Shown in pieces: positions 720 to 30,722 of a stretch of DNA of 30,722 nucleotides. The notes beneath the pieces are model-generated. The model worked only from the letters and a program-made list of their open reading frames with translations, was not told where the DNA came from and did not search any database. The first letter of the stretch is position 1; every line of letters begins with the position of its first letter. This stretch comes from Lachnospiraceae bacterium Zagget3 (GTDB lineage Bacteria; Bacillota_A; Clostridia; Lachnospirales; Lachnospiraceae). The stretch is from the NCBI GenBank assembly GCA_001941025.1, contig MSHE01000008.1:1-30722 (forward strand), read 5' to 3'. Position numbers and translations under genes: made by a program.

Positions 720-785
720 TTGTTATATACGTTATGGGGAATATTCCTCATAATGCAGCGGTATTTAGCCAAAAGGAGGACGATT

Positions 786-2918
786 ATGAGAAAGGGTATT
801 TTGAAACGAGTGCTTGTATGTGTATTATCGGCAGGCATGGTATTAGGTCTTGGCGGGATGACTGCCTTGGCGGGAGAAACTGACAATAGCGAGGGCAAAA
901 CCCTTGCAACAACGAATGGTTCAGAAGCGTTTGCCATCTATAGCGATGACGACAATTCGCTGTCATTTTATGCGGACGGTACCGTTCCGACAGAGGGGAG
1001 TACCTATAACGGAAAGACGGCAACGGAAGTGTATGAGAATGTGGATGAGCTAGAAGCGTCAGTTCCAGCAGAGGTTCCATGGTATAGTGTTTCGGGAAGT
1101 ATAACGAGTGTGACGGTTGACTCCTCATTTAAGAGTGCTCAACCTATTAGCCTTGCAAACTGGTTTTGTTCTTTTAGAAACTGTACAGAGATTGAGGGGT
1201 TAGAGAATATAGATACATCAAACGTTGAGAGTATGCGTCAAATGTTCGGTGCTTGCAGCAGTCTGACAGAGTTAGATTTAAGCAGTTGGGACACATCAAA
1301 AGTGACTGACATGCATGAGATGTTCCAAATTTGTGCCAGCCTGACCGAGTTAGATGTAAGCGGATGGGATACGGCAAATGTCACGGACATGCGCAATATG
1401 TTCGACGACTGTTCCAGTCTGACAGAGTTAGATTTAAGCAGTTGGGACACATCAAAAGTCACTAATATGTCTGATATGTTTTGCTACTGTACCAGCCTGA
1501 CATCCCTTGATTTAAGCAGGTTCGACACGGCGAACGTTATGTATATGACCGCGATGTTCGATGATTGTACAAGCTTGACCACGCTGGATGTGAGTGGATT
1601 TGACACATCAAATGTTGAGGGTATGAATTGGTTGTTCGCTGACTGTTCCAGCTTGACCACATTAGATGTGAGTGGATTTAATACCTCAAATGTTTCGCAC
1701 ATGTACTGCATATTCGGAGGTTGTTCCAACCTTACCACGCTGGATGTGAGTGGATTTGATACATCAAATGTTACAGACATGGGTTTTATGTTCTTTGAAG
1801 ATACCAACCTCGCCGATGTAGATGTGAGCGGATTTAACACATCAAACGTTGATAGCATGTACCATATGTTTTATAACTGTACCAGCCTGACATCCATCGA
1901 TGTAAGCGGATGGGATACGGCAAATGTCACGGACATGGGCTGCATGTTTGATGGCTGTTCCAGCCTGACCGAGCTTGATTTAAGTGGTTGGGACACGTCA
2001 ATGGCATCCTTTTACGGCGATGAGTTTGCCAATGGTTGTACATTCCTTCAGCATGTCGTGCTTGGTGAGAAAACCGACGTCTTTACCAAGGGGCAGTTTG
2101 TAGACCAGCAGAACTGGTATGACGGCGATGTAAACGGGGCCCTCGTATCGAGTAGCTATTTGCAGGATGCGAAATATCCTGGGGAGTATTGGAGCTATAC
2201 GGAGTCGAGCGGAGACAAAATCAACGGACTCCATAAAGACTCCGACGGAGTCTGGCGTTATTACGTGGACGGAGTAGCCACCAACTATACTGGGTTTGCT
2301 AAGAACGACAATGGCAAATGGTATGTAGAAAATGGCGTGGTGACATTCAAAACAACTGGTGTAATCAAAGACACGACTGGTGCAATCGGAGAAAAAGGTG
2401 CTTGGTACTATGTGGTCAACAGCAAAGTACGGGAAGATTACACTGGCGTTGCAAACCATAAGAACGAGAACGGCTGGTGGTATGTGAAGAATGGTAAAGT
2501 CGATTTCTCCCACACTGGCGTTGAAAAGAACAACAATGGCTGGTGGTATGTCACGGGCGGAAAAGTAGACTTTAACCACAACGGTGTCGACAAGAACAGC
2601 AATGGCTGGTGGTACATCGAGGGTGGCAAAGTCAACTTCAACTACACAGGCGTTGGTAATTACAAAAACTCCAACGGTTGGTGGTACATCAAGGGCGGCA
2701 AGGTCGATTTCTCCGCCAACACCGTCGCCAAGAACAACAACGGCTGGTGGCTTGTCGAGGGTGGCAAAGTCAACTTCAATTACACTGGCGTTGCCAATTA
2801 CAAGAACGCGAACGGCTGGTGGTATGTGAAAGATGGCAAGGTCGACTTCTCCTATACTGGCAGAGCTCAGAATAAGAACGGCTGGTGGAATGTCGTAAAC
2901 GGAAAAGTGAAATTTTAG
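786..2918 (+). CDS. BspA/DUF285-repeat surface protein with Trp-rich C-terminal repeats
   Basis: The protein has 710 residues from the ATG at 786, chosen because AAAAGGAGGA lies 5 bases upstream and a signal peptide begins there; an upstream in-frame ATG at 720 has no ribosome site. Residues 1-29 form an export signal: basic MRKGILKR, a hydrophobic core, then ALA before Gly30. Residues about 142-407 hold eleven 24-residue DUF285 (BspA-like leucine-rich) repeats, each of the form SLTELDLSSWDTSKVTDM..MF, often with a Cys at the end. Residues about 481-710 hold ten Trp-rich repeats (GWWYVKNGKVDF type) like those of the upstream partial gene. No LPXTG anchor is visible, so attachment probably depends on the C-terminal repeats. 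The likely role is a secreted, wall-attached adhesion or recognition protein. The N-terminal half is AT-richer than the C-terminal repeats, which points to domain exchange or transfer. Confidence 0.9.
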   Translation: MRKGILKRVLVCVLSAGMVLGLGGMTALAGETDNSEGKTLATTNGSEAFAIYSDDDNSLSFYADGTVPTEGSTYNGKTATEVYENVDELEASVPAEVPWYSVSGSITSVTVDSSFKSAQPISLANWFCSFRNCTEIEGLENIDTSNVESMRQMFGACSSLTELDLSSWDTSKVTDMHEMFQICASLTELDVSGWDTANVTDMRNMFDDCSSLTELDLSSWDTSKVTNMSDMFCYCTSLTSLDLSRFDTANVMYMTAMFDDCTSLTTLDVSGFDTSNVEGMNWLFADCSSLTTLDVSGFNTSNVSHMYCIFGGCSNLTTLDVSGFDTSNVTDMGFMFFEDTNLADVDVSGFNTSNVDSMYHMFYNCTSLTSIDVSGWDTANVTDMGCMFDGCSSLTELDLSGWDTSMASFYGDEFANGCTFLQHVVLGEKTDVFTKGQFVDQQNWYDGDVNGALVSSSYLQDAKYPGEYWSYTESSGDKINGLHKDSDGVWRYYVDGVATNYTGFAKNDNGKWYVENGVVTFKTTGVIKDTTGAIGEKGAWYYVVNSKVREDYTGVANHKNENGWWYVKNGKVDFSHTGVEKNNNGWWYVTGGKVDFNHNGVDKNSNGWWYIEGGKVNFNYTGVGNYKNSNGWWYIKGGKVDFSANTVAKNNNGWWLVEGGKVNFNYTGVANYKNANGWWYVKDGKVDFSYTGRAQNKNGWWNVVNGKVKF

Positions 2919-2921
2919 AAT

Positions 2922-3062
2922 CGATACGTAAATGCGCGAGACGGGAGGGTCTGCCCCAGGACGCGTAAGCAACCGAGGGCGCTCGAACAGAAACGATACG
3001 TAAATGCGCGAGACGGGAGGGTCTGCCCCAGGACGCGTAAGCGTCCGAGGGCGCTCGAACAG
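2922..3062. repeat. Tandem direct repeat, 69 bp at a 72-bp period
   Basis: Bases 2922-2990 and 2994-3062 are the same sequence with two adjacent substitutions (AA at 2971-2972 versus GT at 3043-3044). Each copy contains GCGCGAGACGGGA (2934-2946; 3006-3018), a 13-base match in the same direction to the 3' end of the tRNA-Gly gene (3151-3163). In the second copy the change restores a perfect hairpin GGACGC-GTAA-GCGTCC with a GNRA-type loop (3031-3046); in the first copy this hairpin is broken. The array lies in the 3' untranslated region of the surface-protein gene. Confidence 0.9.
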
Positions 3063-3141: not shown

Positions 3142-3149
3142 CAACCGAG

Positions 3150-3222
3150 AGCGCGAGACGGGACTCGAACCCGCGGCCTCGACCTTGGCAAGGTCGCGCT
3201 CCACCAACTGAGCCACTCGCGC
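3150..3222 (-). tRNA. tRNA-Gly (anticodon GCC)
   Basis: Read on the minus strand from 3222, the gene has a 7-bp acceptor stem (GCGCGAG with CTCGCGC), a D arm with AGTTGG, an anticodon stem CGACC/GGTCG around the loop TTGCCAA, and a T arm GCGGG-TTCGAGT-CCCGT. The anticodon is GCC, decoding GGC and GGU. The discriminator base at 3150 is U, as is usual for bacterial tRNA-Gly. The CCA end is not encoded. A strong promoter lies just upstream. Confidence 0.97.
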
Positions 3223-14905: not shown

Positions 14906-15583
14906 ATGTCTGATTTGACCTTATATCATGGCTCCCCGGAGATTGTCGAGAAAACGGCTTACGGGAAAGGGGCCGTTTATAATGATTACGGCAGGGGGTT
15001 TTACTGCACGGAAGAAGAGGAATTGGCAAAAGAGTGGGCGTGTTCCGGGAATTCTGATGGATATGTCAATCAATATGAGTTTCGCACGGAAAAGTTGAAC
15101 ATTCTCAATCTCTCCACAGAGGAGTATACGATTCTGCACTGGTTAGCGCTGCTGATGGAGAATCGACGAGTTTCTCTGGCCACGCCGATGATGGAACAGG
15201 GGGCAGCCTGGCTCAGGAATCATTTTCTTCCGGATATCCGACCGTATGATGTGATCATTGGCTATCGCGCGGATGATTCCTACTTTTCTTTTGTCCGAGC
15301 ATTTGTAGGCAATGAGATTTCTCTGGAGCAGCTGCGCTGTGTTATGATGCTCGGCGAGTGGAAGGAACAAATCGCTTTAAAGAGTAAAAAGGCTTTTGAA
15401 CGAATTCGCTTTGTCTCCTTTGAGCCGGTGGAGTGCAGCGCTTATTATCCGCTTTGCAGGAGGCGAGATGATACGGCGCGGGCGGCCTACCGCGCGGAAC
15501 TCGAGAAAACGGTGTTGGAAGGATGGTTTATCAGAGACCTGATGCGGGAGGAGGTGAGCGCTGATGATCCGCGCATACACTGA
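14906..15583 (+). CDS. DUF3990-like protein, probable ADP-ribosyltransferase-fold toxin
   Basis: The 225-residue protein opens with LTLYHGS (His8) followed by YNDYGRGFYCTEEEELAKEWA at 25-45, the arrangement that defines DUF3990. That family is placed in the ADP-ribosyltransferase superfamily, where a His, a Tyr and a later acidic or Gln residue bind NAD. The C-terminal part EQIALKSKKAFERIRFVSFEPVE matches the closing strand of the same family. AGGAGA lies 7 bases before the ATG. The downstream XRE-domain gene overlaps it by 20 bases, and the pair is driven by a repressed-looking promoter, so a toxin role is inferred. The target is unknown, and activity on NAD is not shown by sequence alone. 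Confidence 0.75.
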   Translation: MSDLTLYHGSPEIVEKTAYGKGAVYNDYGRGFYCTEEEELAKEWACSGNSDGYVNQYEFRTEKLNILNLSTEEYTILHWLALLMENRRVSLATPMMEQGAAWLRNHFLPDIRPYDVIIGYRADDSYFSFVRAFVGNEISLEQLRCVMMLGEWKEQIALKSKKAFERIRFVSFEPVECSAYYPLCRRRDDTARAAYRAELEKTVLEGWFIRDLMREEVSADDPRIH

Positions 15584-16208
15584 TGATTATGCAGAGGATG
15601 CCATGAGAAATCTCGGTGAAGCGGTGGACTATGCCGTGAATCTTTGTCAGATGGCTCCCGATGATTTTATGGCAATGTTTGTGACTGGCGGGATCGCCGA
15701 CCGGTTTGGCGATGGCGTGCCAAAGTATATCTGCGGTCTGTCGGGCACAGAATTGGCGATGAAAGTGATCCAACAGGCCGGAATCGAGCGTGAATTTCCG
15801 GGGCCGTCAACGTCTTATGATCGTTCGCCCGAATACTGGGCCGGCTGGGTGTTGGCTTATTATCAATGGTATAGCGGCCGCAGTTTTCGGGAAATTATGA
15901 ATTTTATTTCCATGGAAGAAATCATTTCGTTGTATTTCCCGCTGCATGAGGCAAGTGAAGACAAATTTGTGGACACGCTGGAACAGATCATCCAGCAGGA
16001 ACATCCTGCAACAAAGCTGCAGACGTTGCGGCGCCTCGCCTGCTATTCACAAAAGATGCTCGCCGAAAAGTCTGGTGTGTCGCTTCGCATGATTCAGCAG
16101 TATGAGCAGCGGGCAAAAGATATCAATAAAGCCTCCGCCATTCATTTGGAGGCGTTGGCGCGGGCGCTGGGCTGTCGCATGGAGGATCTGCTGGAACCGG
16201 TGGCATGA
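15564..16208 (+). CDS. Probable antitoxin: DUF3791-like N-terminus plus XRE helix-turn-helix
   Basis: The 214-residue protein has an N-terminal part (about 1-75) with DFMAMFVTGGIADRFGDG and GLSGTELAMKVIQ, resembling small DUF3791-type partners of DUF3990 proteins. A middle region (about 85-140) with SPEYWAGWVLAYYQWYSGRS and FPLHEASEDKFVD is shared by a widespread uncharacterised Firmicute family. Residues about 149-212 form an XRE-type HTH (TLRRLACYSQKMLAEKSGVS, then LRMIQQYEQRAKDINKA). GGGAGGAGGT precedes the ATG inside the toxin gene, so the two are translationally coupled. It probably neutralises the toxin through its N-terminal and middle parts and represses the operon with the HTH (inference). 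Toxin-before-antitoxin order is less common but known. Confidence 0.75.
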   Translation: MIRAYTDDYAEDAMRNLGEAVDYAVNLCQMAPDDFMAMFVTGGIADRFGDGVPKYICGLSGTELAMKVIQQAGIEREFPGPSTSYDRSPEYWAGWVLAYYQWYSGRSFREIMNFISMEEIISLYFPLHEASEDKFVDTLEQIIQQEHPATKLQTLRRLACYSQKMLAEKSGVSLRMIQQYEQRAKDINKASAIHLEALARALGCRMEDLLEPVA

Positions 16209-24248: not shown

Positions 24249-24321
24249 GTTCTATGTGTGAAAAAAACCCCAAACGGCGCCCAAAACACTGGGCGCGTGC
24301 AGTGGAAAGGGGGTGGTGGAT

Positions 24322-25014
24322 ATGAGCGATCTTGCAACAAACTTAAAAGACCAGTTGACAGTGGAGACTGTTTTTACGATTCCGATCGGTCCGGGGATCG
24401 AGATCGCGGAGTCCGTGGTGGTCATGTGGGGCGTCATGGCGGCGTTGATTATCGCCGCTCTTCTTTTGGTTCGCAATTTACGGGTCAAGGACCCCAGCGA
24501 CAAGCAGATCATGCTGGAGTTTGTGGTCGGCTGGTTCTACGGGATGTTTGACAAAATGCTCAATGAGAAGGCAAAGGGCTACGCCCCCTATCTGATGGGT
24601 GTCTGCCTGTTCATCGGAGCGGCAAACATTACCGGCATGGTCGGATTCAAACCACCGACGAAAGACCTAAACGTCACCATTGTTCTGGCGGCCATGAGTA
24701 TGGTGGTGATCGAATACGCTGGTATCCACGCGAACGGTTGGCGGGGCTGGGGCAGGGCCTTCACCAAGCCTGTCGGTCTTATCACACCGATCAATATGAT
24801 AGAGGTCGTGATCCGGCCATTCTCGCTGTGCATGCGACTGTTCGGCAATGTCCTCGGTTCGTTTGTCATCATGGAGCTGATCAAGACCGTGCTCCCTGAG
24901 GTGGTACCGATGGTACTAAGCCTATATTTCGACCTATTCGATGGGTTCATACAGGCATACATTTTTGTATTCCTAACGGCCCTATATATAAACGAAGCAG
25001 TAGAAGGTAACTAG
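24322..25014 (+). CDS. atpB: ATP synthase Fo subunit a
   Basis: This membrane subunit forms the ion channel against the c-ring. The ATG at 24322 lies about 8 bases after AAAGGGGG; two in-frame GTG codons just upstream (24313, 24316) overlap that site and are less likely. The 230 residues are hydrophobic, with the essential Arg at about 172 in [10 protein letters not shown] and the C-terminal [18 protein letters not shown] helix. [20 protein letters not shown] precedes the key helix, as in other bacterial a subunits. It begins the operon; no atpI is present in front. Confidence 0.95.
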
Positions 25015-25046
25015 GAAATCCAAGCTTTCAGGAAAGGAGAAACATT

Positions 25047-25271
25047 ATGGTAGCACTTGGAGCTGGTATTGCAGCAATTACCGGAATCGGAGCCGGTATC
25101 GGCATCGGCATCGCGACGAGCAGAGCCGTGGATGCGGTGGCGAGACAGCCTGAAGCGGACAGCAAGATCATGAGAAACCTGCTGCTCGGTTGTGCTCTGG
25201 CGGAAGCAACCGCCATTTACGGGATGGTCGTGGCAATTCTGATCATCTTCATGCTCAACAGTTCTTCATGA
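25047..25271 (+). CDS. atpE: ATP synthase Fo subunit c
   Basis: The 74-residue two-helix protein forms the rotating ring that carries ions. Helix 1 is Gly-rich ([16 protein letters not shown]), the loop is ARQPEADS, and helix 2 holds the ion-binding Glu53 in [12 protein letters not shown]. The Gln of Na+-type rings (GVGQG) is replaced by Ile20 and the Ser after the Glu by Ala54, so proton coupling is more likely than sodium (inference from ligand comparison). AGGAGA lies about 6 bases before the ATG. Confidence 0.96.
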
Positions 25272-25341
25272 CCCGGCCAAGATCGAAAGCAGCTTAACGA
25301 CAAGAACTTCCTTGATTTTATCATGTGAGAGGACGAACACT

Positions 25342-25833
25342 ATGTTACGAATTGATTCAAACATGATCTGGGTTTTTATCAATCTGGTCATCTTCATCGT
25401 TGTGATGTGGCTGATCCTGTTTAAGCCTGTCTTAAACATCATTGAGAAGCGGCGCAATATGATCAACGACCAGTTTGCGGCGGCCGACAAGAAAACCGCG
25501 GAGGCGGAGAAGATGAAGAAAGAATATGAGGAACATCTGTCTCACGCGAAGGACGAATCCATGCAGATCATCGAGGACGCGCAAAAGCGCGGTGAGACGC
25601 AGTATCAGCAGATCGTCGGCGACGCGCAGACGAAGGCGACGCAGCTTATCAATGACGCGAATCTGGATGTGGAACGGGAGCGCAAAAAAGCGCTCGATGA
25701 GGCACAGACTGAAATCGGCAATCTGGCGATGCAGGCTGCCGCCAAAATCGTGGCGGGTTCCGATTCGGAGCGGACGGATGAGGAGATCTACAACGAGTTT
25801 TTGAAAAAGTCGGAGGATGGATCGGAGGATTGA
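25342..25833 (+). CDS. atpF: ATP synthase Fo subunit b
   Basis: The 163-residue peripheral-stalk subunit has one N-terminal membrane helix (MIWVFINLVIFIVVMWLILF) followed by a long charged coiled coil rich in Ala, Glu and Lys. The ATG at 25342 has GAGAGG upstream; earlier in-frame codons do not. The acidic end (KKSEDGSED) is slightly longer than usual. atpH begins 2 bases after the stop. Confidence 0.95.
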   Translation: MLRIDSNMIWVFINLVIFIVVMWLILFKPVLNIIEKRRNMINDQFAAADKKTAEAEKMKKEYEEHLSHAKDESMQIIEDAQKRGETQYQQIVGDAQTKATQLINDANLDVERERKKALDEAQTEIGNLAMQAAAKIVAGSDSERTDEEIYNEFLKKSEDGSED

Positions 25834-25834
25834 T

Positions 25835-26347
25835 ATGACACAGACGGCTTCCACATACGCGAGAGTACTGTGGGAACTTTCCGTCCCGCAGGAAAGCATA
25901 GGGGATACTCTGTCCATTTTTGCGGAGTCGCCGGAACTGCAAAAAGTGCTGGGCGACCCGGAAGTGCATTTGGATAAGAAAGAAGCGGTTGTGGACCGCG
26001 TTTTCCCGGAAGCCATGCGCAATTTCGTAAAAGTGCTCTGCCGTTACAAGAAAATCGGATTTCTTCCGGAGATCATCGAGGAATACCGAATTTATGCCGA
26101 TGCGCACAATCGGATCGTGAATGCGACGCTGACGTATGTAACGCCGCCGAATGACGAACAGATGGAAGGCATCAAAAAGTTTCTCTTAAAGACGTACGAC
26201 GCGAAGGATGTCGACCTTATAGAGGAGCAGGAGCCGGATCTGCTCGGCGGGTTTATCCTGTCCGTCGGCGACGATGAATATGATTGGAGCGTCCGGGGGC
26301 GCATGCAGGCATTGGAAAGGAAGTTGACAGGAGGTGAAGACAGATGA
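25835..26347 (+). CDS. atpH: ATP synthase F1 subunit delta
   Basis: The 170-residue subunit joins the peripheral stalk to the top of F1. It starts TASTYARVLWELS, an all-helical N-domain that contacts the alpha N-termini, and ends with the typical LLGGFILSVGDDEYDWSVRGRMQALERKL, given here in part. GGAGGA precedes the ATG at 25835. It overlaps atpA by ATGA, so the two are coupled. Confidence 0.95.
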   Translation: MTQTASTYARVLWELSVPQESIGDTLSIFAESPELQKVLGDPEVHLDKKEAVVDRVFPEAMRNFVKVLCRYKKIGFLPEIIEEYRIYADAHNRIVNATLTYVTPPNDEQMEGIKKFLLKTYDAKDVDLIEEQEPDLLGGFILSVGDDEYDWSVRGRMQALERKLTGGEDR

Positions 26348-28197
26348 GCACGATCAATTCCAATGAGATCATCTCAATCTTAAAGGAAGAGATTGAAAAC
26401 TTTGATTTTGAGGCAAAAGATCGTGAGGTCGGTACCGTAATCTGGGCCGGTGACGGAATCGTCACGGTGTATGGCATCGATAAAGCCATGTACGGAGAGG
26501 TCGTTGTCTTTGAAAACGGCGTCAAAGGCATGGTGCAGGATGTCCGGACCGGAGAGATCGGCGTCATCCTGTTCGGCAGTGATGAAGAGATCGGTGAAGG
26601 CACCAAGGTCACAAGGACGAAAAAAATGGCCGGATTAGGCGTTGGAGATCAATGTCTCGGCCGGGTTATCAATGCGTTGGGCGCGCCGATCGATGGCGGC
26701 GGAGACATCGAAACGGATGACTACCGCGCAATCGAACAGCCGGCACCCGGGATCGTGCAGCGGCAGCCCGTCCGGGTTCCCATGGAAACAGGCCTTCTGT
26801 CGATTGATTCCATGTTTCCCATCGGAAGAGGACAGAGGGAATTGATCATCGGCGACCGGCAGACGGGAAAAACTTCCATCGCCACGGATACGATCATCAA
26901 TCAAAAGGACAACGATGTGATCTGTATTTATATCGCCATTGGCCAGAAAGCGTCCACGGTCGCAAGGCTTGTGAATATGCTGAAACAGTACGGCGCTATG
27001 TCTCATACCATCGTCGTGATGGCGTCGGCCAGCGATCCGGCTCCGCTTCAGTATGTCGCGCCTTACGCGGGCACGGCACTGGGGGAGTATTTTATGGATC
27101 AGGGCAAGGACGTGCTGATCGTGTACGACGATCTCTCCAAGCACGCGGTCGCGTATCGGGCGTTGTCCCTTCTGCTGGAGCGTCCTCCGGGACGGGAAGC
27201 GTATCCGGGCGACGTGTTCTATTTGCATTCCAGACTGCTGGAACGGGCCAGCCGGGTAAATGACGAGCTGGGCGGCGGTTCCATTACGGCGCTTCCGATC
27301 ATCGAGACACAGGAAGGAGATGTCTCCGCTTACATTCCGACGAACGTGATCTCCATCACCGATGGACAGATCTATCTGGAAACGGATTTATTCAACTCCG
27401 GCATGCGGCCGGCGGTCAATGTCGGATTGTCGGTGTCCCGTGTCGGCGGAGACGCGCAGACCAAGGCGATGAAAAAGGCAGCCGGCTCGATCCGGATCGA
27501 CCTGGCCCAGTACCGCGAGATGCAGTCCTTCACGCAGTTCAGTTCCGATCTGGATGACTCGACAAAGGAAGAGCTGGCGTATGGCAACGGGTTGATGGAA
27601 TTGCTCAAACAGCCTATTTGCAGTCCCCTTTCCATGGCGGAGCAGGTCGTGACCCTCTGGGTGGCCACACATAAGCTCTTGATGGATGTGGATGTCAAAA
27701 AGATCAAAAAGGCGCAGATGGATATGCTGCACTATTTTTCGAGTACGCATGCGGAGATTCTGGATGAGCTCATGGAAAAGAAGGAGCTTTCGGATGAGCT
27801 TGGCGACCAGATCCTGAGTGTGGCGAAGGAATTCATGGACAGGCAGGGCGACGCCTATATCACTAAGAAAGCGGCCGATTCCGGCGCGGACAGCAGCGCA
27901 AGCGCGGACAGCAGCGCAAGCGCGGACAGCGGCGCAAGCACGGACAGCGGCGCAAGCGCGGACAGCGGCGCAAGCACGGACAGCAGCGCGGAGCCCGCCG
28001 AGAGCGCGGCAGCGGACAGCAGCGCGGAGCCCGCCGGAGACGACAAGGCGGACAGCGACGCAAGCGCGGACAGCGGCGCAAGTGCGGACAACAGCGCGGA
28101 ACCCGCCGAGAGCACGGAAGCGGACAACAGCGCGGAGCCCGCCGGAGACGACAAGGCGGACAGCGACGCAAGCGCGGACAACGGAGACGACAAGTAG
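26344..28197 (+). CDS. atpA: ATP synthase F1 subunit alpha with a long Asp/Ser/Ala-rich C-terminal tail
   Basis: The protein has 617 residues, while ordinary alpha subunits have about 500-510. Residues 1-509 are standard: the N-terminal crown barrel, the non-catalytic P-loop GDRQTGKTSIATDTI, and SVSRVGGDAQTKAMKKAAGS with the arginine finger. The helical C-domain ends DRQGDAYITKK. Residues 510-617 are a low-complexity tail made of six-residue ADSGAS-type units (DNA period 18 bases). Two longer units of SAEPAES...ADxSAEPAGDDKADSDASAD follow, and the tail ends DNGDDK. The tail is strongly acidic, lacks Trp, Tyr, Phe and Cys, and is expected to be disordered. The frame stays open to a TAG and gamma follows normally, so this is not a frameshift. 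Confidence 0.97.
   Translation: MSTINSNEIISILKEEIENFDFEAKDREVGTVIWAGDGIVTVYGIDKAMYGEVVVFENGVKGMVQDVRTGEIGVILFGSDEEIGEGTKVTRTKKMAGLGVGDQCLGRVINALGAPIDGGGDIETDDYRAIEQPAPGIVQRQPVRVPMETGLLSIDSMFPIGRGQRELIIGDRQTGKTSIATDTIINQKDNDVICIYIAIGQKASTVARLVNMLKQYGAMSHTIVVMASASDPAPLQYVAPYAGTALGEYFMDQGKDVLIVYDDLSKHAVAYRALSLLLERPPGREAYPGDVFYLHSRLLERASRVNDELGGGSITALPIIETQEGDVSAYIPTNVISITDGQIYLETDLFNSGMRPAVNVGLSVSRVGGDAQTKAMKKAAGSIRIDLAQYREMQSFTQFSSDLDDSTKEELAYGNGLMELLKQPICSPLSMAEQVVTLWVATHKLLMDVDVKKIKKAQMDMLHYFSSTHAEILDELMEKKELSDELGDQILSVAKEFMDRQGDAYITKKAADSGADSSASADSSASADSGASTDSGASADSGASTDSSAEPAESAAADSSAEPAGDDKADSDASADSGASADNSAEPAESTEADNSAEPAGDDKADSDASADNGDDK
27871..28197 (+). repeat. Repeat array encoding the alpha-subunit tail
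   Basis: Bases 27871-28197 are built from an 18-base unit close to GCGGACAGCGGCGCAAGC, repeated about six times. Two copies of a unit of roughly 100 bases follow, containing GCGGAGCCCGCCGAGAGC and GGAGACGACAAGGCGGAC. All unit lengths are multiples of three, so the frame is kept. Such arrays change length readily by slippage or recombination. Confidence 0.9.

Positions 28198-28209: not shown

Positions 28210-30722
<2,513 letters not shown>

What the first reader, a model, noticed from the sequence alone, without database searches (positions are those of the whole stretch)
27871..28197. ATP synthase alpha subunit carries a ~108-residue acidic repeat tail
Seen: residues 510-617 of AtpA follow the canonical end and consist of in-frame ADSGAS-type repeats and two larger SAEPAE/GDDK repeats, strongly acidic and without aromatic residues. 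Known: F1 alpha normally ends at about 500-510, and its C-terminal domain faces the membrane side near the central stalk. Inference: the three tails per enzyme would crowd the lower face of F1 and could act as a brake, a tether or a stabiliser. The repeat DNA also suggests that length varies among strains.
Basis: partly seen in the sequence, partly recalled or inferred. Interest (0 to 1): 0.82.

Follow-up and report, generated by a model that had tools for sequence, protein, structure and literature searches.

The report
Acidic tails on bacterial ATP synthase
An uncultured bacterium of the Lachnospiraceae carries long, probably floppy, charged tails on the main subunits of its ATP-making enzyme, and the tails look like part of a wider drift of its proteins towards negative charge rather than a dedicated motor brake.

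Summary
AtpA (26344-28197, 617 aa) ends its conserved core near residue 497-500 and continues with about 112 low-complexity residues (net -24, no aromatics) encoded by in-frame 18-bp and 108-bp repeats. Nine of 120 listed relatives (core 80-84% identical) have alpha tails of 39-111 residues; with the window they form one clade (support 100/99) of uncultured Lachnospiraceae. Tails differ in sequence and length, even between proteins with identical cores, but keep their charge. One tailed relative (G404) could be sampled: orthologous cores are shifted to negative charge against two tailless relatives (98 of 125 and 92 of 109 pairs), and acidic low-complexity ends are more frequent (16 of 947 genes against 3 of 850). 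The F1 alpha and gamma cores are more acidic too. Halanaerobium and its nearest kin, halophiles, independently have acidic alpha tails (24 of 30 loci read at least 20 aa). Best reading: disordered charge/hydration bristles grown by codon-repeat expansion in an acidified proteome. A mycobacterial-type rotor latch is not supported. Function is inferred.

The parts
26344..27858 (+). atpA conserved core, residues 1-505
   Evidence: TIGR00962 4-500; PF00306 ends at 497
27859..28194 (+). alpha tail, residues 506-617, acidic low complexity, net charge -24
27884..28097 (+). 18-bp in-frame repeat array in the alpha tail
27941..28184 (+). 108-bp in-frame repeat, 2.3 copies, 93% matches; two full copies differ at 8 bases, 2 of them third codon positions
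28210..29100 (+). atpG (gamma), 296 aa, starts 12 bases after the atpA stop; no tail
29117..30514 (+). atpD conserved core, residues 1-466
   Evidence: TIGR01039 3-461
30515..30721 (+). beta tail from residue 467: acidic half, basic patch SKKRRGSR, then K/E repeat; runs off the window
30614..30718 (+). 18-bp repeat array encoding the K/E part of the beta tail
24313..26347 (+). atpB, atpE, atpF, atpH: same operon, no tails

Best explanation
The alpha and beta subunits of this F-type ATP synthase carry long low-complexity, probably disordered tails that arose by in-frame expansion of short codon repeats in one clade of uncultured Lachnospiraceae. They are kept for bulk properties (charge, hydration, flexibility), not for a sequence that docks anywhere: six flexible bristles around the membrane-facing lip of F1. 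They are the most visible part of a shift of the lineage to acidic proteins and acidic low-complexity segments, resembling adaptation to high ionic strength. Shown: tails on both subunits, clade distribution, composition, turnover, acidification of the sampled proteome of one tailed relative (G404). Inferred: that the tails stay on the mature protein, are disordered, act through hydration and charge, and the link to salt.
For: Ten tailed alphas (window plus 9 of 120 listed relatives) form one clade, 100/99. Charge is kept while sequence and length are not: NCPR -0.15 to -0.28 in 10 of 10 alpha tails, lengths 33-112 after residue 505; P0012 and P0013 are identical over 499 aligned core residues but differ at 4 of 81 tail residues (counted by eye). 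Beta tails of the window, P0123-P0126 and G404 share an acidic start followed by K/E repeats. Serine codon AGC: 3 of 32 in the alpha core, 25 of 27 in the tail; in G404 6 of 30 and 20 of 30, as expected of local repeat expansion. G404 has 16 of 947 low-complexity C-ends against 3 of 850 in two tailless relatives pooled, p 0.005. Aligned ortholog columns are more acidic in G404 than in G163 in 98 of 125 pairs and than in G418 in 92 of 109; G163 against G418 27 of 56, p 0.98. Alpha core charge averages -22.6 in 10 tailed and -14.7 in 100 untailed, 3 of 100 overlapping; gamma is -2 (window) and -6 (G404) against +2 to +11 in five tailless relatives. Peptide deformylase: 19 of the 23 best-listed homologs of G404's (P0244-P0266) have an acidic internal insert that makes this segment 56-185 residues long against a median of 16 in 94 other listed homologs. 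The 30 closest loci in the class of Halanaerobium all end alpha with net negative residues, 24 of 30 with at least 20 of them.
Against: Beta tails are near-neutral overall (net 0 to -8 in five) and their second half is slightly positive, so 'polyanion' fits alpha better than beta; beta cores are not clearly more acidic (p 0.08). P0014's alpha tail is K/E-rich. The acidification rests on one sampled genome; for the window itself it is 8 of 11 pairs against G163, p 0.38. The excess of low-complexity ends is weak against each relative alone (p 0.045 and 0.053) and not significant with a 60-residue criterion (6 of 947 against 0 of 479, p 0.19). Core comparisons are not corrected for phylogeny. Acidic C-ends of deformylase are also common in homologs without the insert. 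Oren 2013 (PMC3817357, passages) says Halanaerobiales genomes do not show an acidic proteome, and in my small sample Halanaerobium (81 genes near atp) has median pI 5.43 against 5.40 for Blautia (61 genes). Of the 55 matched genomes of that class 25 were not read, and many of them have open frames too short for a long tail. Habitat and physiology are unknown. The 108-bp copies show no excess of third-position changes.
Confidence: 0.5

Rival explanations
1. Nearly neutral by-product: codon-repeat slippage at the 3' ends of genes in this lineage produces harmless disordered ends that nothing removes. D, S, G, N, A and T codons of the form RNC interconvert by single changes, so the composition would follow from the DNA repeat.
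For: AGC bias; 6 of 8 differences between 108-bp copies at codon positions 1-2; fast turnover; codons such as GAC, AGC and GCN cannot mutate to a stop in one step (code table).
Against: Present in 10 of 10 clade members found; beta tails have another, shared layout with K/E units; other frames would give basic or hydrophobic tails and one frame of G404's has 7 stops, yet 9 of 10 alpha tails keep the acidic small-residue make-up and the tenth (P0014) is acidic and K/E-rich; the acidic shift also affects folded cores, which slippage cannot explain.
Confidence: 0.22
2. Electrostatic collar: the acidic alpha tails and the basic/K-E part of the beta tails bind each other and tie neighbouring subunits together below F1, stabilising the hexamer or clustering enzymes.
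For: Within the clade both tails occur together in 5 of the 6 cases where both subunits were seen (window, G404, and P0007, P0009, P0011 paired with betas by equal contig length); beta tails have a basic patch and K/E repeats.
Against: P0015 has an alpha tail while the beta from a contig of equal length has none; the second half of beta is only +0.02 to +0.14 charge per residue; alpha tail sequence is not conserved.
Confidence: 0.15
3. Rotary brake: the alpha tail blocks ATP hydrolysis by touching gamma or epsilon, as the mycobacterial alpha extension does.
For: Same location after the alpha core; mycobacterial alpha 533-545 docks in gamma and is the main cause of latent hydrolysis (PMC8698299, passages).
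Against: One hydrophobic residue in 112; the match to mycobacterial alpha stops at query 498 / chain 508 of 548; no conserved segment or length; gamma more negative in the tailed genomes; G404 keeps an epsilon of 138 aa with both Pfam domains, including the helical one.
Confidence: 0.08
4. The repeat acts as DNA or RNA, for instance to set translation of atpG and atpC relative to the 3-copy subunits.
For: The repeats lie just before atpG and (in G404) atpC, genes for single-copy subunits.
Against: Folding energies are not special: z 0.76, -1.25, -1.21; no Rfam match there at gathering threshold; the charge of the protein is conserved.
Confidence: 0.02
5. Assembly or frameshift artefact.
For: Repeats can break assemblies; the window ends inside the beta repeat.
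Against: P0008, listed on a contig of 4190 bases, and G404, on a contig of 91327 bases, encode the same alpha including the tail (whether the samples are independent is not known); tails in nine relatives; G404 has both tails closed by stops in a complete operon.
Confidence: 0.02

Closest known systems
Mycobacterial ATP synthase alpha C-terminal extension (deletion 514-548; latch 533-545)
   Same: Extra residues after the alpha core, three per enzyme
   Different: There: short, with hydrophobic contacts to gamma and a shown effect on hydrolysis (PMC8698299 and PMC10770618, passages). Here: longer, no hydrophobic anchor, no conserved sequence, and beta has a tail too
AtpA acidic ends of Halanaerobium and its nearest kin
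   Same: Net negative ends of 12-66 aa past position 497 on acidic cores in 30 of 30 loci read, 24 of 30 at least 20 aa
   Different: There the end opens with a hydrophobic stretch (such as MFQVKENTIVDMD), is mostly shorter, and beta has only 4 extra residues in the 9 Halanaerobium loci read
Acidic low-complexity regions of prokaryotic proteins
   Same: Negatively charged low-complexity segments, enriched in halobacteria (PMC6821194, passages)
   Different: That paper's main text does not contain 'ATP synthase'; here both F1 head subunits carry them in a Lachnospiraceae lineage
KEKE motifs
   Same: Alternating K/E repeats as in the beta tail (name recalled; one search listing seen)
   Different: No relation tested

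Membership tests
F-type ATP synthase subunit alpha (atpA) | Match over the curated cut-off across the core | tested here: met
   TIGR00962 759.8 bits, cut-off 484.45
F-type ATP synthase subunit beta (atpD) | Match over the curated cut-off across the core | tested here: met
   TIGR01039 820.7 bits, cut-off 462.85
Mycobacterial-type alpha latch | Residues added directly after the alpha core | tested here: met
Mycobacterial-type alpha latch | Short segment with hydrophobic and polar residues that docks in gamma | tested here: not met
   1 hydrophobic residue in 112; match to 7jg5 stops at query 498 / chain 508
Mycobacterial-type alpha latch | Suppresses ATP hydrolysis | not testable with these tools
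   needs enzyme assays
Halophile-type protein acidification | Orthologous cores more acidic than in relatives | tested here: inconclusive
   Met for the relative G404: 98 of 125 and 92 of 109 pairs. For the window itself 8 of 11 pairs, p 0.38
Halophile-type protein acidification | Life or cytoplasm at high salt | not testable with these tools
   No habitat known. G404 has no OpuAC match while its four tailless genus mates have one, but 2 other genomes of the 7 searched have none either and G404 is only 1.7 Mb; TrkH is in 7 of 7

The most novel reading that the evidence does not exclude
In an uncultured Lachnospiraceae lineage, F1 wears a six-tail disordered skirt (three acidic, three acidic plus K/E) that is an evolved ion- and water-structuring device, convergent with the acidic alpha ends of the Halanaerobium group, and that tunes motor stability or rotation to cytoplasmic ionic strength.
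Probability: 0.2. Interest if true: 0.8.

Novelty: new variant of a known kind. Interest (0 to 1): 0.52.

Why it matters
ATP synthase is among the most conserved enzymes, and its head subunits rarely change length. A clade that adds about 40-110 low-complexity residues to alpha and usually to beta, with fast turnover, offers a natural experiment on what F1 tolerates and on whether disordered charged tails alter a rotary motor. It also points to an uncultured Lachnospiraceae lineage with a halophile-like charge shift in its proteins.

Tried and rejected
Rejected: RNA-level role; mycobacterial latch by sequence; GC content alone as the cause of acidification (G163 at 43.0% and G418 at 48.3% GC do not differ in charge; G404 is 51.6%, so a control at equal GC is missing); P0003-P0006 as long-tailed relatives (they hold internal duplications); P0044 (unrelated 55-residue end). 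Left out of the core-charge count: P0003-P0006, P0016, P0017, P0018, P0033, P0044, P0059 and P0075 for alpha, as duplicated, extended or fused; P0128, P0131 and P0197 for beta (P0197 has an internal duplication; the other two are longer but end without a tail, and were not studied).

Led nowhere: own genome not held; paper searches gave no papers, and the listings of 11, 27, 40, 52, 75 and 76 showed nothing on such tails; a phage search with the tail DNA gave no match (plasmids and E. coli not searched); structure prediction could not be run, so disorder is judged from composition only. OpuAC and TrkH searches were inconclusive.

The low-complexity criterion was my own choice. Gene sets come from a mechanical longest-ORF rule and contain some false genes.

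Full report
OBSERVATION. The ORF 26344-28197 (+) is atpA in an operon atpB-E-F-H-A-G-D. The atpA model ends at residue 500 and Pfam's C-terminal domain at 497. The remaining residues are low complexity, 26% acidic after residue 505, net -24, with no aromatic residue, encoded by in-frame 18-bp and 108-bp repeats. Untailed relatives in the list are mostly 499-504 residues long, one 509.

WHAT WAS NOT IN THE FINDING. AtpD also has a tail from about residue 467: an acidic half, a basic patch and a K/E repeat of period 18 bp. The window ends inside that repeat, perhaps an assembly break (inference). The other subunits in the window (a, c, b, delta, gamma) match their relatives end to end without tails; epsilon lies beyond the window, and G404's is 138 aa with both expected Pfam domains.

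DISTRIBUTION. A protein search scored 7938 relatives and listed 120; 9 of the 120 have real low-complexity tails of 39-111 residues. For beta, 4 of 120 listed have tails of 80-92 residues. Equal contig lengths suggest that P0007/P0126, P0009/P0124 and P0011/P0123 come from the same contigs, each with both tails, while P0015/P0127 has an alpha tail only; this pairing is an inference. In held genomes the genus of G163 (20 genomes, 10 with a match) contains one tailed member, G404, with 85 residues on alpha and 77 on beta, both closed by stops; the other nine loci read have 0-12 extra residues. The 30 best loci of 397 family genomes (322 with a match) have none over 12; the other matches were not read, except two. 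Those two, fetched because their matches ran past the core, have other tails: G297 86 residues on alpha, charged and helical-looking, with 4 on beta; G317 25 on alpha and 46 on beta. Of 80 loci from named genomes, the 9 of Halanaerobium have acidic alpha ends of 25-43 and one Lachnospiraceae MAG (L021) has 24; a few others show 19-30 residues past the alignment, mostly because the alignment stopped before the end of the core, and one Acidaminococcus (L053) a non-acidic 21. A tree of 32 alpha cores puts the window and its 9 tailed relatives in one clade with 100/99 support, P0015 at its base; inner branches are weaker. G297 and G317 fall outside on long branches whose place is unsure; different tail types suggest that tails arose more than once.

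HOW THE TAILS EVOLVE. P0012 and P0013 are identical over 499 aligned core residues and differ at 4 of 81 tail residues; P0008 and P0010 share 481 of 499 core residues but have 85 and 64 tail residues. Serines are AGC in 25 of 27 tail codons against 3 of 32 in the core, p 3e-11; in G404 20 of 30 against 6 of 30, p 6e-4. The two 108-bp copies differ at 8 bases, only 2 at third positions. This is the mark of recent repeat expansion without visible constraint on single residues. Yet net negative charge is kept in 10 of 10 alpha tails, and beta tails keep their acidic then K/E layout.

CONTEXT. I sampled about 1.1 Mb of G404, 0.62 Mb of G163 and 0.41 Mb of G418. Low-complexity C-ends: 16 of 947, 2 of 479 and 1 of 371 genes; pooled controls 3 of 850, p 0.005, though p is 0.045 and 0.053 against each alone and 0.19 with a 60-residue criterion against G163. 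Besides AtpA and AtpD, 10 of the 16 were scanned and include peptide deformylase, Lgt, gyrase A, a radical SAM protein, a starch-synthase family protein, a CLC channel, SecDF and a penicillin-binding protein; gyrase A has such an end in G163 too. The Lgt tail is missing in five other genomes, whose best matches stop at residue 251-254 in open frames of 256-268 aa. G404's deformylase has an acidic internal insert of about 85 residues that four relatives lack. Among its 120 listed homologs, 19 of the 23 best (P0244-P0266) have that segment enlarged to 56-185 residues against a median of 16 in 94 others; in the remaining 4 of 23 the segment could not be located. The acidic C-end is less special: 34-84 residues after the active-site motif in the 23 against a median of 32 (up to 64) in the 94. 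Whether those 23 come from the same clade as the tailed alphas is not shown, except P0245, whose contig length equals that of G404's contig and which NCBI labels a Lachnospiraceae MAG.

Beyond tails, aligned columns of reciprocal best hits are more acidic in G404 than in G163 (98 of 125, p 1e-13) and G418 (92 of 109, p 1e-15), while G163 and G418 do not differ (27 of 56, p 0.98). Median pI is 5.06, 5.58 and 5.74. In F1 itself the alpha core is -26 and -27 in window and G404 against -11 to -16 in five relatives without long tails, and gamma -2 and -6 against +2 to +11. Over 10 tailed and 100 untailed alphas the means are -22.6 and -14.7, with 3 of 100 overlapping; beta shows no clear difference (p 0.08). 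These core tests ignore shared ancestry. For the window alone the proteome test is too small: 8 of 11 against G163, p 0.38.

CONVERGENCE. In the class that holds Halanaerobium, 59 genomes were searched, 55 matched, and the 30 loci most like the Halanaerobium query were read: 30 of 30 have alpha ends of 12-66 residues past position 497, all net negative (-1 to -23), 24 of 30 at least 20 long, on cores of -18 to -46. The 25 not read are less similar, and many have open frames of 509-514 aa, which leave little room for a tail, so this is a feature of a group within the class. Halanaerobiales are anaerobic halophiles (Oren 2013, PMC3817357, passages). Against the simple analogy, the same review states that their genomes do not show an acidic proteome, and 81 Halanaerobium genes near atp have a median pI of 5.43 against 5.40 for 61 of Blautia.

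MECHANISM. By established F1 structure the C-termini of alpha and beta face the membrane side around the central stalk. Six long charged tails there would act as a flexible skirt. With one hydrophobic residue in 112, no conserved motif and free length, a specific dock on gamma is unlikely; gamma's own shift to negative charge makes attraction to a polyanion less likely still. The mycobacterial extension is a short segment with hydrophobic contacts to gamma (PMC8698299, passages) and is not reached by the sequence match. I therefore favour a bulk role in hydration and charge, at 0.5, with near-neutral slippage at 0.22 and an alpha-beta electrostatic collar at 0.15.

NOVELTY. Searches of an open-licence library listed no paper that, by title and abstract start, describes such tails on Lachnospiraceae ATP synthase; subscription papers are mostly missing there. 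The enzyme is known, extensions on alpha are known, acidic low-complexity regions are known; the paired long tails on both head subunits in this lineage appear to be a new variant.

Noticed in passing
L138:3483-4310 (G404): Peptide deformylase with an acidic internal insert of about 85 residues; 19 of the 23 best listed homologs have the same segment enlarged to 56-185 residues, against a median of 16 in 94 others.
   Followed up: partly
L266-L295 (class of Halanaerobium): AtpA net negative C-terminal ends in 30 of 30 loci read, many opening with a shared hydrophobic stretch (F-x-V/I then I/L-V about six residues on); possibly a functional motif.
   Followed up: partly
L122 (G297): AtpA with an 86-residue charged, helical-looking tail of different type; no long beta tail.
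   Followed up: no
window 2917-3062: 72-bp direct repeat, 2 copies, 95% matches, sharing GCGCGAGACGGGA with the neighbouring tRNA-Gly gene at 3149-3222 (-).
   Followed up: no
window 720-2918 and 2-310: PARCEL/DUF285 repeat surface protein with choline-binding-type repeats, preceded by an open-ended ORF over tandem repeats of similar sequence.
   Followed up: no
window 14906-16208: DUF3990 protein overlapping a helix-turn-helix protein.
   Followed up: no
G404 whole genome: No OpuAC match in G404 while its four tailless genus mates have one; the held genome is small (1.7 Mb) and may be incomplete.
   Followed up: partly
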